Positions 38,069 through 56,377 of a stretch of DNA of 64,000 nt are shown piece by piece. Made by a program: the position numbers and the translations under genes. Within the stretch, counting starts at the first letter, position 1. Each line of letters opens with the position of its first letter. Source of the stretch: Spirosoma foliorum. Lineage in GTDB: Bacteria; Bacteroidota; Bacteroidia; Cytophagales; Spirosomataceae. The notes beneath the pieces were generated by a model. That model was not told the origin of the DNA. It saw nothing but the letters and a program-made list of their open reading frames with translations, and did not search any database. The stretch lies in assembly GCF_014117325.1 (NCBI RefSeq), contig NZ_CP059732.1:1798001-1862000 (forward strand), written 5' to 3'.

Positions 38069-38210
38069 CTAGTGCTTTACCAACGTAGACTCTCGGGTTC
38101 GCCTGCGCGGTTGATTCTATCGGATTCTATCGGATTCTATTGGCGATATTCTATTGGTAGTCAATGGATAAGCTGTCAATTAGGATCAAAAGAGTCGCTA
38201 GAATCTAAAT
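38069..38210 (+). repeat. Dispersed ATTCTA-rich repeat, copy A
   Basis: This 142-bp noncoding unit aligns end to end with the reverse complement of 56017-56147. It begins CTAGTGCTTTACCAA and ends GTCGCTAGAATCT, with CGGATTCTAT tandem units between (one extra unit here). It contains one 16-bp hairpin element at 38094-38109 at a site that is empty in copy B, and it lacks the element that B carries. The remaining gap 38211-38487 shows no gene. Confidence 0.7.
38094..38109 (+). repeat. 16-bp hairpin element, copy 1
   Basis: The sequence CGGGTTCGCCTGCGCG has stem CGGG/CCTG (one G-T pair), loop TTCG and tail CGCG. It sits inside repeat copy A. The aligned site in copy B reads TCTATTGATT with no insert. 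Confidence 0.75.
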
Positions 38211-38487
38211 TGGAAGCGTGCTAGCTTAGTTTGAAGAAACAGGCTTTATAAGCACCCAACAGGTATGTTACACGACAAACGACCAAATTTCTAGACAAAC
38301 TGCGCAATGCGCTCAATTTGTGTAGTGTGAAGGAGTATTACAGTCGTTTGTCTAAAACATCATTGATATATTGAAAATGATTATTGATTTGTCAAATCTG
38401 CGGGCAGGATATGTATATAACTGACGAAAGTTTTCTGCCATCGATAAGTTAACAAGTGAATCCAACATAGGTCTGTAGTCATAGAGC

Positions 38488-39621
38488 ATGAAAGAAATTA
38501 ACCGTATACTGGCTATTTATGATCAACTCGATCATAGGCAACGCAAGGTGGCCCTGGCAACGGTCGTGTACGTGGAAGGATCAGCCTACCGACGACCCGG
38601 TGCCCGTATGCTGGTGAGTGACGATGGCCGCTGGGAGGGCGCCATCAGCGGTGGATGTCTGGAAGGTGACGCGCTGCGTAAAGCTCGTCAGGTCATGCTG
38701 GATGGTAAGCCAATGATCGTGCGCTACGATACCATGGACGACGATGCCAACAGCCTGGGCGTGGGCCTGGGTTGTAACGGCATTATCGATGTGTTCATCG
38801 AGCCAATTGATCCGGCTGATCCAATGAATCCTGTTGCTCTGTTAGGTGAATTTAGCCAGCATCGGGACCGGCGCGTCATTGCTACCATTTGCCGAAAAAC
38901 ACCGGGCTTAGAAATAAGTGAGGGTAGTCGGTTTTTACTTACACAGCAACCAACAAATCAGGTTCCAGTCTGGCTTCTGCCCGATATGGAACTGGTCATG
39001 GAAGTGGGTAAACACTTAACGGCAATAATTCCCTTACTAGGTGGTGTGGTTGAGGTTTTTATTGAACGTCTGGACCCCGGTATCGAGTTGGTAATTTTCG
39101 GGGCTGGCTATGATACAATTCCTCTCACCCGGCTGGCCACCGAAATCGGCTGGCGAGTTACGGTAACCGAAGACTGCATTGCCCACTTAGCGCCCAAACG
39201 CTTTCCGGAAGCGACCTGCCTGCTCTACGCCGATGCTGAGGCTGTAACGGATAAGCTTACCTTCACCGATCGGACAGCCGCCGTGCTCATGTCCCACAAC
39301 TATAACTACGATTTGGCTGTACTAACGAAATTGTTGCTGACCGATGTTCCCTACATCGGCGTTCTGGGTCCCCGGAAGCGTTACGAAAAAATGAAATCCC
39401 ACTGGGATCGATTGGGTAAGTCTTTTGATACAACGATGCTAAAGCGGGTTCATTCCCCGATTGGCTTAGATCTGGGAGCCGAGACGCCGGATGAGATTGC
39501 GCTTTCTATCCTGAGTGAAATTAAAGCCTTTTTCAGCGAGCGGAACGGTGGATTTCTAACCGAACGACCGGGGCCAATCCATGAACGGGTAGCCCTTGAC
39601 GAAGAACTACTTATAGTCTAA
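38488..39621 (+). CDS. XdhC family molybdenum-cofactor insertion protein
   Basis: This 377-residue protein has the XdhC/CoxI N-terminal domain (VEGSAYRRPGARMLVSDDG, then AISGGCLEGDA near 55) and the C-terminal NAD-binding-like part (FGAGYDTIPLTRLA near 210, YIGVLGPRKRYEKM near 290). XdhC proteins bind and sulfurate the molybdenum cofactor for xanthine-dehydrogenase-family enzymes. It is followed 57 nt later by the small and large subunits of such an enzyme, so it is likely its maturation factor. Confidence 0.9.
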   Translation: MKEINRILAIYDQLDHRQRKVALATVVYVEGSAYRRPGARMLVSDDGRWEGAISGGCLEGDALRKARQVMLDGKPMIVRYDTMDDDANSLGVGLGCNGIIDVFIEPIDPADPMNPVALLGEFSQHRDRRVIATICRKTPGLEISEGSRFLLTQQPTNQVPVWLLPDMELVMEVGKHLTAIIPLLGGVVEVFIERLDPGIELVIFGAGYDTIPLTRLATEIGWRVTVTEDCIAHLAPKRFPEATCLLYADAEAVTDKLTFTDRTAAVLMSHNYNYDLAVLTKLLLTDVPYIGVLGPRKRYEKMKSHWDRLGKSFDTTMLKRVHSPIGLDLGAETPDEIALSILSEIKAFFSERNGGFLTERPGPIHERVALDEELLIV

Positions 39622-39678
39622 CTTTATCCTGATACTCAACCTGTATTTTCAGTTGTAAACCCTTTACTTCTTACCACT

Positions 39679-40158
39679 GTGGCAAAATTTAGCATAAAAA
39701 TTAACGGTAAAATCAGGCAGCTGGATGTTGATCCAGCTACGCCCATGCTCTGGATACTCCGCGATCATCTGGACATGCCGGGCACCAAATATGGCTGCGG
39801 TATCGCTCAGTGTGGCGCCTGCACGGTTCATTTAAATGGAACAGCCGTTCGTTCCTGTCAGCTACCTATCTCGACCGTCGGCAAAGAAGCCATCACCACC
39901 ATCGAGGGATTGTCGGCTACCGGTGATCATCCGGTGCAAAAGGCGTGGCTGGAACACGATGTTGCCCAGTGTGGCTATTGTCAGTCCGGGCAAATGATGA
40001 GCGCAGCTTCGCTTTTGAAGACGAATCCCAAGCCTACAGATGAGGACATCGATTTAGCCATGAGCGGGAACATCTGTCGGTGTGGAACATATTTGCGCAT
40101 CAAAGAGGCTATCAAATCGGCAGCTAAAGAAGGAACCAGCTCGTCCACTCGTAAATAA
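39679..40158 (+). CDS. [2Fe-2S] subunit of an isoquinoline 1-oxidoreductase-type hydroxylase
   Basis: This 159-residue protein starts with a GTG at 39679. It has the plant-ferredoxin-like cluster (CGIAQCGACTVH with a further Cys in RSCQLP) and the second cluster (CGYCQSGQ and CRCG, near residues 98 and 133). This is the standard two-cluster small subunit (IorA type) that passes electrons from the molybdenum centre. The large subunit starts 9 nt later. Confidence 0.92.
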   Translation: MAKFSIKINGKIRQLDVDPATPMLWILRDHLDMPGTKYGCGIAQCGACTVHLNGTAVRSCQLPISTVGKEAITTIEGLSATGDHPVQKAWLEHDVAQCGYCQSGQMMSAASLLKTNPKPTDEDIDLAMSGNICRCGTYLRIKEAIKSAAKEGTSSSTRK

Positions 40159-55735: not shown

Positions 55736-56016
55736 AACTAAGCTTATTAATAGGTTTACAAAGCAGTGCTGTTCTCTAGGGAGGTGCGTCTTGTCGCTGA
55801 AACAATGGAGCACCCACTTTTCTTCACAATCAAGCCCGTTTAGGTCCGCAATTTTTCACTTAATGAATTTATTTACCTTAAGTCGTAAAGAAAAAATGAC
55901 CGATGCATCTTATCTAAAGTCGTTTAGTACCATGACTTGATGCAAGTACTCTTCCAAAATAGATTTTTTTGATTCTACTAGATCCTTTTGATACTAGATG
56001 CCTGATTATCAGAATC

Positions 56017-56147
56017 AATAGATTCTAGCGATTCCCGGGTTCGCCCGCGCGGTTGATTCTAATTGATGGTTTAGCTATTGATTATCAGTAGAATGTCCGC
56101 AATAGAATCCGATAGAATCAATAGAATCTAGTTTGGTAAAGTACTAG
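56017..56147 (-). repeat. Dispersed ATTCTA-rich repeat, copy B
   Basis: The reverse complement aligns with 38069-38210. It has one fewer CGGATTCTAT unit, lacks the 16-bp element of copy A and has its own at 56036-56051. Flanks are AT-rich with more ATTCTA words on the left. Confidence 0.7.
56036..56051 (+). repeat. 16-bp hairpin element, copy 9
   Basis: CGGGTTCGCCCGCGCG, stem CGGG/CCCG, loop TTCG, tail CGCG. In copy A the interval between ATCAA and TCGCTAGAATCT is 5 nt; here it is 21 nt, exactly 16 longer. Confidence 0.78.
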
Positions 56148-56166
56148 CTTGTAGGTAGTAAGCTAG

Positions 56167-56377
56167 GGGACTTGCAACAAAACACTGGACAATTTTTTAA
56201 GCAACATTTTGTAGTTGCCCATTATAATAGTCAAAAGGGGAAAGATACCCCAGCGCCGAATGCCTTCGTTGGCGATTGTACCGCACGGGCGGCCCCGCAA
56301 ATCTCTATGTATGCAAACACAGCCTGTTTAGCCATGGCTTGCGTTTGAAAATCCTGCTGATACACCAACTCCGACTT
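56167..56377 (-). mobile_element. IS3-family relic (orfB C-terminus) with one 16-bp insertion
   Basis: The minus strand codes KSELVYQQDFQTQAMAKQ, VFAYIEIWYNRQRRHSALGY and LSPFDYYNGQLQNVA to a stop at 56197, with one 16-bp insert. Excluding it, the fragment is 55 codons long. The end GGGGACTTGCAACAAAACAC at 56167 resembles the right end of the relic at 52324. The rest of the element is missing. Confidence 0.75.
56282..56297 (-). repeat. 16-bp hairpin element, copy 10
   Basis: Minus strand CGGGGCCGCCCGTGCG, identical to copy 3. Removal restores IEIWYNRQRRH; the Trp of the conserved WYN motif is split by the insert. Confidence 0.8.

What the first reader, a model, noticed from the sequence alone, without database searches (positions are those of the whole stretch)
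38094..56297. A family of ten 16-bp hairpin insertions in mobile and repeat DNA
Ten GC-rich insertions of the same length occur at 38094, 44188, 44755, 45015, 51992, 52084, 52157, 52195, 56036 and 56282. Eight split IS3 transposase frames, and removing exactly 16 bp at each of seven sites restores conserved IS3 sequence (for example DLFSRRIVGW, LWSRLKAE, FEYIEGWYN, WYNRQRKH, IEIWYNRQ). The eighth, at 51992, joins in frame to the fragment after it. All ten fit or nearly fit NNGG-NYCG-CCNN-NGCG. Both orientations occur. I know no described element of this form; GC clusters of yeast mitochondria and REP elements are the nearest ideas.
Basis: seen in the sequence. Interest (0 to 1): 0.96.

Follow-up and report, generated by a model that had tools for sequence, protein, structure and literature searches.

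The report
Sixteen-base hairpins that match their targets
The genome of this likely Spirosoma bacterium holds about two hundred copies of a 16-base hairpin inserted into old transposons and gaps between genes, and one loop letter of most copies pairs with the DNA letter beside it, so it is likely a tiny mobile element that would choose its landing site by base pairing.

Summary
In this 8.85-Mb genome the motif occurs 221 times against 22 for the reversed control. It exceeds the control in 22 of 24 congeners and in several other genera of the family. A stricter pattern gives 5 hits in 292 genomes of the class outside the family. In alignments of transposon copies, scored without the motif, 106 of 156 distinct insertions of 4-40 nt are exactly 16 nt and 26 are 15 nt. 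Six of the ten window sites have homologues that lack 16 bp. Each unit holds two overlapping hairpins that cannot both be complete. At 49 empty-site-defined insertions the variable pairs are Watson-Crick in 47-49 of 49. One pair joins loop base 6 to the pre-existing target base at +1 (48 of 49; permutation mean 33.5). No published family that I tested fits. One element-rich complete genome lacks both Y1 transposases and reverse transcriptases, though one Y1 gene elsewhere is flanked by two units. Best explanation: a very small mobile element, likely inserted as a single strand by an unidentified trans-acting enzyme, with target choice read in part by base pairing. Enzyme and single-strand step are inferred.

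The parts
38094..38109 (+). 16-nt hairpin unit CGGG-TTCG-CCTG-CGCG, inside a longer intergenic repeat
   Evidence: strict motif hit; longer repeat seen in own-genome copies, no empty site
44188..44203 (+). 16-nt unit ACGG-TCCG-CCGT-GGCG inserted in IS3 orfA remnant
   Evidence: homologue L123 lacks exactly 16 bp, flank identity 1.0
44755..44770 (-). 16-nt unit CGGG-GCCG-CCCG-TGCG inserted in IS3 orfB remnant
   Evidence: homologue L123 lacks exactly 16 bp, flank identity 0.97
45015..45030 (+). 16-nt unit TCGG-ACCG-CCGA-AGCG inserted in IS3 orfB remnant
   Evidence: homologue L123 lacks exactly 16 bp, flank identity 0.90
51992..52007 (-). 16-nt unit ACGG-TTCG-CCGT-TGCG in second IS3 remnant
   Evidence: strict motif; the same unit with C instead of T at base 6 at the same place in L165; L160 and L167 carry further-mutated copies
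52084..52099 (+). 16-nt unit ACGG-TCCA-CCGT-TGCG; A at unit base 8 and at +1 where homologues have G
   Evidence: L165 net 16 but ragged; L160, L162, L163 and (with G at base 13) L166 carry the unit with TCCG..|G at the same site
52157..52172 (+). 16-nt unit CAGG-GCCG-CCTG-TGCG in second IS3 remnant
   Evidence: L165 lacks exactly 16 bp, flank identity 0.75
52195..52210 (-). 16-nt unit CAGG-GCGG-CCTG-TGCC; compensatory change at pair 7:16
   Evidence: L162 lacks exactly 16 bp, flank identity 0.78; pair 7:16 is G:C instead of C:G
56036..56051 (+). 16-nt unit CGGG-TTCG-CCCG-CGCG inside the longer intergenic repeat
   Evidence: strict motif; longer own-genome copies aligned (89 and 96% identical over 93 bp) carry it
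56282..56297 (-). 16-nt unit CGGG-GCCG-CCCG-TGCG in an IS3 fragment
   Evidence: strict motif; reverse strand reads IS3-like protein on both sides (read by eye); no clean empty homologue
   Evidence: strict motif hit with G-T at the outer pair; no homologue spanned it
43990..45233 (+). host IS3-family element remnant (orfA 43990-44293, orfB about 44290-45233) holding three units
   Evidence: ORF list; related Spirosoma loci; limits read from the ORF list by eye

Best explanation
The units are inserts of exactly 16 (sometimes 15) nucleotides and are likely copies of one very small mobile element family that a trans-acting enzyme, not yet identified, would insert as a single-stranded hairpin. 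Shown: the insertion has a fixed length and no target-site duplication. The unit has the plan N1 N2 G G N5 N6 N7 G C C N2' N1' N13 G C N7', followed by target base N6'. Helix H1 pairs bases 1-4 with 9-12. Helix H2 pairs bases 6-9 with 14-16 plus the target base +1. H1 and H2 share base 9, so both cannot be complete at once. The target is mostly R|RY, usually R|GT. Inferred: the loop base must pair with the target base for joining. The hairpins would act as splints that hold the target end next to the end of the unit. In the 15-nt class the left target base also pairs, with base 12. Later mutation then leaves some mismatches.
For: Indel lengths scored without the motif: 106 of 156 are 16 nt and 26 are 15 nt; 94 of the 106 carry the motif. 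At 49 empty-site-defined sites, pairs 1:12, 2:11, 6:+1 and 7:16 are Watson-Crick in 47, 49, 48 and 49, and 0 of 5000 permutations reached these values for any of the four. Pattern searches that left bases 6, 7, 16 and +1 free gave 6:+1 pairs in 72 of 87 (permutation mean 40.7, max 56 of 20000) and 7:16 in 87 of 105 (mean 59.0, max 74). C:G, T:A, A:T and G:C are all seen at 6:+1. Target: R at -1 in 47 of 49, G or A at +1 in 47 of 49, Y at +2 in 43 of 49. Copy numbers vary between congeners, from none above control (G007, G008) to about 290 above it (G005), as for a mobile family.
Against: No mobilising gene was found. Of 36 genomes of the genus (own included) 7 lack a Y1 match and 17 lack an RVT_1 match; the element-rich complete genome G019 lacks both. 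There is no strand bias in the stretches fetched (37 plus, 41 minus), whereas IS608 and ISDra2 target the lagging-strand template (abstract of PMC6006769 in the listing). Stem type, base 6 and base 7 show no linkage above z 3, which is odd for copies of a few masters. Folding energy alone is unremarkable (z -0.4 to -1.4 in 5 of 5). Pair 6:+1 was not Watson-Crick in 11 of 45 sites of other genera where 7:16 was paired. In G005 and G024 it was strict in only 3 of 8 sites with T at base 6, and in 33 of 57 sites whose outer stem was imperfect. The third 15-nt site has A opposite G at 6:+1.
Confidence: 0.47

Rival explanations
1. Fold-back-templated synthesis: at a break or nick a polymerase extends the target strand and copies back on itself, so bases 6-9 (H2) and then 9-12 (H1) are made on the spot. 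Base 6 would then be a copy of the target base rather than a reader of it, and no mobile lineage would exist.
For: Base 6 follows the target base. In the 15-nt class base 12 pairs with the unit's left neighbour in 3 of 3 distinct sites with T at base 5. Base 6 and base 7 are not linked to stem type.
Against: Bases 3, 4, 8, 9, 10, 14 and 15 recur across species and sites, and identical 16-mers recur (one type 19 times in 109 sites). A purely local process would not give this without a fixed template. At one of the three 15-nt sites the empty homologue has A where the unit's left neighbour is T.
Confidence: 0.25
2. REP-like element moved by a Y1 (RAYT/TnpA-REP) transposase, with a guide sequence as in IS200/IS605.
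For: Hairpin with a short conserved foot, inserted without target duplication, with target read by base pairing. Y1 matches occur in 29 of 36 genomes of the genus. In one of 39 fetched Y1 loci (L133, genome G002) two units in opposite orientation flank the Y1 match, about 32 and 37 nt away.
Against: Seven of 36 genomes lack Y1 matches, among them the element-rich G019 and G040. The GTAG/CGTC tag is absent and the stem is 4 bp. No strand bias. The other 38 Y1 loci show no such flanking pair; the 39 loci (126.9 kb) hold 10 loose motif hits, 4 of them in L147.
Confidence: 0.17
3. Translationally bypassed or spliced inserts: the host genes would still be expressed, as with mitochondrial byp elements (recalled).
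For: Units lie in coding frames of transposases and the same insertion is shared by several species.
Against: In alignments of 86 units with empty homologues (49.6 kb, of 197 units), indels other than the unit itself are mostly frame-breaking: 111 of 1 nt, 19 of 2 nt, 9 of 3 nt, besides 97 of 16 and 16 of 15 nt. The window IS3 also has an in-frame stop after DNPY. Units avoid long open frames.
Confidence: 0.03
4. Short regulatory or terminator hairpins under selection, not insertions.
For: Many lie between genes, and several lie in longer palindromic repeats.
Against: Empty homologues with 16 bp less inside transposase genes; the target base is part of the covariation.
Confidence: 0.02

Closest known systems
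REP / BIME / REPIN elements and RAYT (TnpA-REP) transposases
   Same: short GC-rich dispersed hairpins, single or as inverted pairs; one Y1 gene here is flanked by two units
   Different: REPs are described as 20-40 bp with GTAG or CGTC at one end and most GTAG stems of 6-9 bp (PMC3733652, start of abstract and passages); here 16 bp, no such tag, 4-bp stems, and present where no Y1 match is found
Small dispersed repeats of cyanobacteria (Elhai et al. 2008)
   Same: very small repeats, some 20 bp long, which might be mobile (one citing sentence in PMC2884548; the paper itself was not held)
   Different: other length; that they are cyanobacterial comes from the cited title; whether they read the target base I do not know
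IS200/IS605 single-strand transposons
   Same: cleavage site chosen by base interactions, canonical and non-canonical, with a guide next to a hairpin (PMC6006769, passages)
   Different: they encode their transposase and have hairpins of about 20-25 nt at both ends; here the two hairpins overlap in 17 nt and one is completed by the target base
GC clusters of yeast mitochondria
   Same: GC-rich palindromic mobile repeats of unsettled mechanism
   Different: GC42 is 42 nt, and the abundant clusters are flanked by AG or ACT direct repeats (PMC4478555, passages); here no duplication
Rickettsia palindromic elements (RPE)
   Same: palindromic inserts found in genes
   Different: end in CGTC and many lie in frame in genes (PMC3733652, passages); here 16 nt, frame-breaking

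Membership tests
REP (GTAG superfamily) | GTAG-type tetranucleotide at the foot of the hairpin | tested here: not met
   recurrent tail is NGC(G) 3' of the stem
REP (GTAG superfamily) | length 20-40 bp, most stems 6-9 bp | tested here: not met
   16 nt (53 of 55) or 15 nt (2 of 55), stem 4 bp
REP (GTAG superfamily) | associated with a resident RAYT gene | tested here: inconclusive
   no PF01797 match in 7 of 36 genomes including element-rich G019 and G040, but a flanking pair at 1 of 39 Y1 loci
REP (GTAG superfamily) | extragenic, inverted pairs occur | tested here: inconclusive
   inverted pairs exist but many copies split transposase genes
CGTC repeats / RPE | CGTC end and 8-9 bp stem | tested here: not met
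   consensus
IS200/IS605 guide mechanism | element base pairs with the target base at the insertion point | tested here: met
   base 6 is complementary to +1 in 48 of 49 empty-site-defined sites; complementarity only, pairing itself not shown
IS200/IS605 guide mechanism | no target-site duplication | tested here: met
   empty sites restore the flanks with no duplication
IS200/IS605 guide mechanism | Y1 transposase acts on the element | not testable with these tools
   needs a biochemical test; Y1 matches absent in some carriers
Small dispersed repeats (cyanobacteria) | sequence and length classes of the original paper | not tested
   paper not held
[quoted passage not shown]
   -1 is A or G and +1 is mostly G, with no repeat across the insert
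Bypassing (byp) elements | host gene otherwise intact and expressed (definition recalled) | tested here: not met
   151 frame-breaking indels other than 15/16 nt against 29 of 3n length, 16 of which are the 15-nt ones; expression not testable
MITE | terminal inverted repeats and target duplication (definition recalled) | tested here: not met
   no duplication and a 4-bp internal stem

The most novel reading that the evidence does not exclude
A 16-nucleotide self-splinting mobile DNA, the smallest insertion unit known to me: two mutually exclusive hairpins share one base, a hairpin is completed by a target base at one or both junctions, and insertion is thus programmed by single-base pairing, carried out by an enzyme class not yet linked to transposition.
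Probability: 0.33. Interest if true: 0.97.

Novelty: new variant of a known kind. Interest (0 to 1): 0.88.

Why it matters
If right, mobile DNA can be as short as 15-16 nt and still carry structure, length control and a target-reading base. That would make it testable how tiny palindromic repeats (REP, GC clusters, small dispersed repeats) arise and move, because here the insertion rule can be read from sequence. It would also be a new example of base-paired target choice, and the units are a frequent source of frame-breaking insertions in old transposons of this bacterial family.

Tried and rejected
Tried: (1) Y1/RAYT presence: not needed in all carriers, but one flanking pair found at L133. 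(2) Reverse transcriptase presence: not needed in all carriers. (3) Rfam on the window: 0 matches at gathering score. (4) Viral contigs: one motif hit, L179, in DNA of 70.8% GC and likely chance; second pattern 0 hits. (5) A loose pattern with W at bases 1 and 12: near or below the control in most of 9 genomes, not used for counts. (6) The 'GC..GC..C' class looked like a second family; one search showed that it is the same units read on the other strand, shifted by one. (7) A longer repeat with TAAAAATC before and GGTTC after some units: not the source of the rest. (8) Bypass: rejected. (9) Gene context: 73 open stretches next to units; four match IS110 families and four rve; of the 25 families shown the others match one to three members.

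Rows dropped before counts: the 156 insertions are distinct strings, and one site can appear more than once; collapses the 106 of 16 nt to 80 sites and uses 49 of them, those with all seven fixed bases (the script prints 'of 8', but the consensus has seven fixed letters). The other 31 are mutated copies or other-register readings and are printed there. One search used 117 of the 150 rows listed (itself a capped list), repeats left out by eye, then 105 after automatic removal of similar flanks. One search used 120 of the 150 rows listed (also capped), repeats left out by eye. One search used 73 of 79 references. The own-genome stretches were mostly chosen around motif hits, so densities from them are not genome-wide, and draws on loci fetched as homologues of unit-rich transposons. 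One search counted alignments over three query lengths, so one homologue can count up to three times.

Literature: searches of an open-access library showed no description of this element in the rows listed (titles and abstract starts only; one search found no paper). That library lacks most subscription papers, so this is not proof of absence.
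Full report
CHECK OF THE OBSERVATION. The window lies at 1,798,001-1,862,000 of an 8,853,064-bp genome in one contig. There the pattern occurs 221 times (105 plus 116) against 22 for the pattern read backwards. The nearest named relatives of its IS3 transposase piece are Spirosoma telluris (79%) and S. luteum (76%). The S. telluris contig has the same length as contig C1 of G016, which the search calls same-genus. The genus name is therefore inferred.

LENGTH. In pairwise alignments of 109 sequences (145 units), alignments spanning a unit gave a net difference of 16 in 197, 0 in 187 (self included), 15 in 17, and other values less often. 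With stricter flanks, 55 of 151 units had an empty homologue; 53 differed by 16 nt and 2 by 15. Scored without the motif, in 890 alignments, 156 distinct insertions of 4-40 nt had lengths 16 (106), 15 (26), 4 (9), 14 (4) and few others; 94 of the 106 and 11 of the 26 carry the motif. This sample is enriched for unit-bearing transposons by the way loci were fetched, and one site can give several strings. In the window, 44188, 44755 and 45015 are empty in L123 (flank identity 0.90-1.0), 52157 and (raggedly) 52084 in L165, and 52195 in L162. 51992 and 52084 are shared with other species, whose copies differ from the window copies by single changes. 38094 and 56036 lie in a longer repeat.

STRUCTURE. 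Mutual information over 109 sites ranks 1:12 (z 47), 2:11 (z 45), 5 with 12 and 1 (z 32 and 29), 7:16 (z 25) and 6:+1 (z 20.5) first. The same pairs came out in the first set of 88 sites, except 7:16, which that pattern held fixed. The set that is free of pattern bias for these positions is: 49 empty-site-defined insertions with all seven fixed bases. Pair 1:12 is Watson-Crick in 47 of 49, 2:11 in 49, 7:16 in 49 and 6:+1 in 48; permutation maxima are 30, 33, 40 and 42. Pairs 3:10, 4:9, 8:15 and 9:14 do not vary in that set by construction. Among the 31 dropped sites two carry a compensated 8:15 pair (C:G). The two helices H1 (1-4/9-12) and H2 (6-9/14-16 and +1) share base 9. The 17-mer formed with +1 has the same plan on the other strand. 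DNA folding picks H1 for one and H2 for three of four top-strand 20-mers, and H2 on the complementary strand for the fifth sequence; energies are not unusual.

TARGET BASE. Base +1 exists in the empty site, so it belongs to the target. With 7:16 paired, 6:+1 was C:G 87, T:A 14, A:T 2, G:C 1, T:G 3 and other 8 of 115. For one stem type it was Watson-Crick in 38 of 42 in the genus and 34 of 45 in other genera. In G005 and G024 it was 55 of 63 with a Watson-Crick outer stem, where T at base 6 was followed by A in only 3 of 8, and 33 of 57 with an imperfect stem. One T:G case, 51992, has C at base 6 in a homologue, so it is likely a later change. The target is R at -1 (47 of 49), G 40, A 7, C 2 at +1, and Y at +2 (43 of 49). 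The two 15-nt cases are both exceptions to the rule that base 5 complements base 1. There position 1 lies outside the insert and base 12 pairs with it; at one of them the empty homologue has A where the unit's neighbour is T. A host repeat supports the class: own-genome copies read TCATCCCGAC|GTCAGGAGGGAT, and G024 strings have the 15-mer CGGTCCGCCGGTGCG between C and G. Other 15-nt inserts do not fit this rule.

DISTRIBUTION. Counts exceed the control in 22 of 24 congeners (G015 only by 55 to 46; not G007 and G008). None of 14 genomes of other families of the order shows a clear excess (largest G030, 4 against 0; G035 110 against 142). In 200 genomes of the family other genera also carry it, for example G054 149 against 7, G159 184 against 7, G101 120 against 9 and G144 41 against 0; many others are at background (that pattern can count a site twice). 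A stricter pattern finds 55 against 0 in the own genome, 8 against 0 in G011, 0 in G079 of the family, and 5 hits in 4 of the 292 genomes outside the family (12 for the control there), among 295 searched in the class.

CONTEXT. Of 79 own units in long stretches, 24, 16 and 7 lie inside open stretches of at least 150, 200 and 300 aa, against 77%, 70% and 56% of random positions. Neighbouring open frames include IS110 and IS3 pieces. Other indels in unit-bearing stretches are mostly frame-breaking, so these look like decaying genes, not bypassed ones.

MECHANISM. Committed reading: a mobile hairpin of 15-16 nt, inserted as a single strand, with joining helped by pairing of target bases to the unit. 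Shown: length, lack of duplication, complementary pairs, complementarity to the target base. Inferred: single strand, splinting, trans-acting enzyme, copying. Y1 and reverse transcriptase are not needed in all carriers: G019 lacks both. But L133 has a Y1 match flanked by two units in opposite orientation, about 32 and 37 nt away, the only such case among 39 fetched Y1 loci; no homologue there shows whether the two are inserts. No strand bias: 30 plus and 30 minus in 0-3 Mb, 7 and 11 in 3-4 Mb; GC skew changes sign near 2.9 Mb. The main rival is fold-back-templated synthesis, favoured by the lack of linkage between stem type, base 6 and base 7 and disfavoured by the constant core.

KNOWN FAMILIES. 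REP and CGTC repeats (PMC3733652, passages), IS200/IS605 guides (PMC6006769, passages) and GC clusters (PMC4478555, passages) share parts of the plan; REP, CGTC repeats and GC clusters each fail a tested defining feature, while the guide principle is met as far as complementarity goes. I therefore file it as like these in action but a member of none, and as a new variant of very small mobile palindromic repeats.

Noticed in passing
L133 (G002), units at 1454-1469 (-) and 1892-1907 (+) around a Y1 match at 1501-1854: A Y1 transposase gene flanked closely by two units in opposite orientation, as RAYT genes are by REPs; one case in 39 loci.
   Followed up: partly
L160 (G018), about 2405-2511 of the locus: A unit TCGGACTGCCGAAGCA|G present as an exact 16-nt extra stretch against the window's IS3: a T:A version of pair 7:16.
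   Followed up: partly
G024:C1:5025014-5025068: Two units in tandem before the same GTTGC target, as if the second had inserted at the same junction as the first.
   Followed up: no
several congener loci (outputs): A recurring 15-nt insert ACGGTCCGCCGCGCG at several sites, after C or T in the rows shown, lacking base 12; also a 14-nt insert GGCCACCGTGGCGC at two sites.
   Followed up: no
window 38094 and 56036; own-genome copies at G000:C1 around 1904886, 3008475, 3386609, 3735144: A longer AGATTCTA-rich intergenic repeat that carries a TTCG-type unit in the copies seen.
   Followed up: partly
window about 30569 and congener strings: A palindromic host repeat GTCATCCCGACG..AGGAGGGATC that is a repeated target of units, in several cases twice in mirror positions.
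   Followed up: partly
own genome, e.g. 685270, 1526278, 2994356, 3646588: Units inside a repeat with TAAAAATC before and GGTTC or GGGTC after.
   Followed up: partly
window 44987-44989: In-frame stop after DNPY in the IS3 orfB remnant, a lesion independent of the 16-nt units.
   Followed up: no
G144 (genus g41): ACGG-type units in repeated left contexts such as ATAAA or ATAGAA in a low-background genome; a good system for a cleaner analysis.
   Followed up: no
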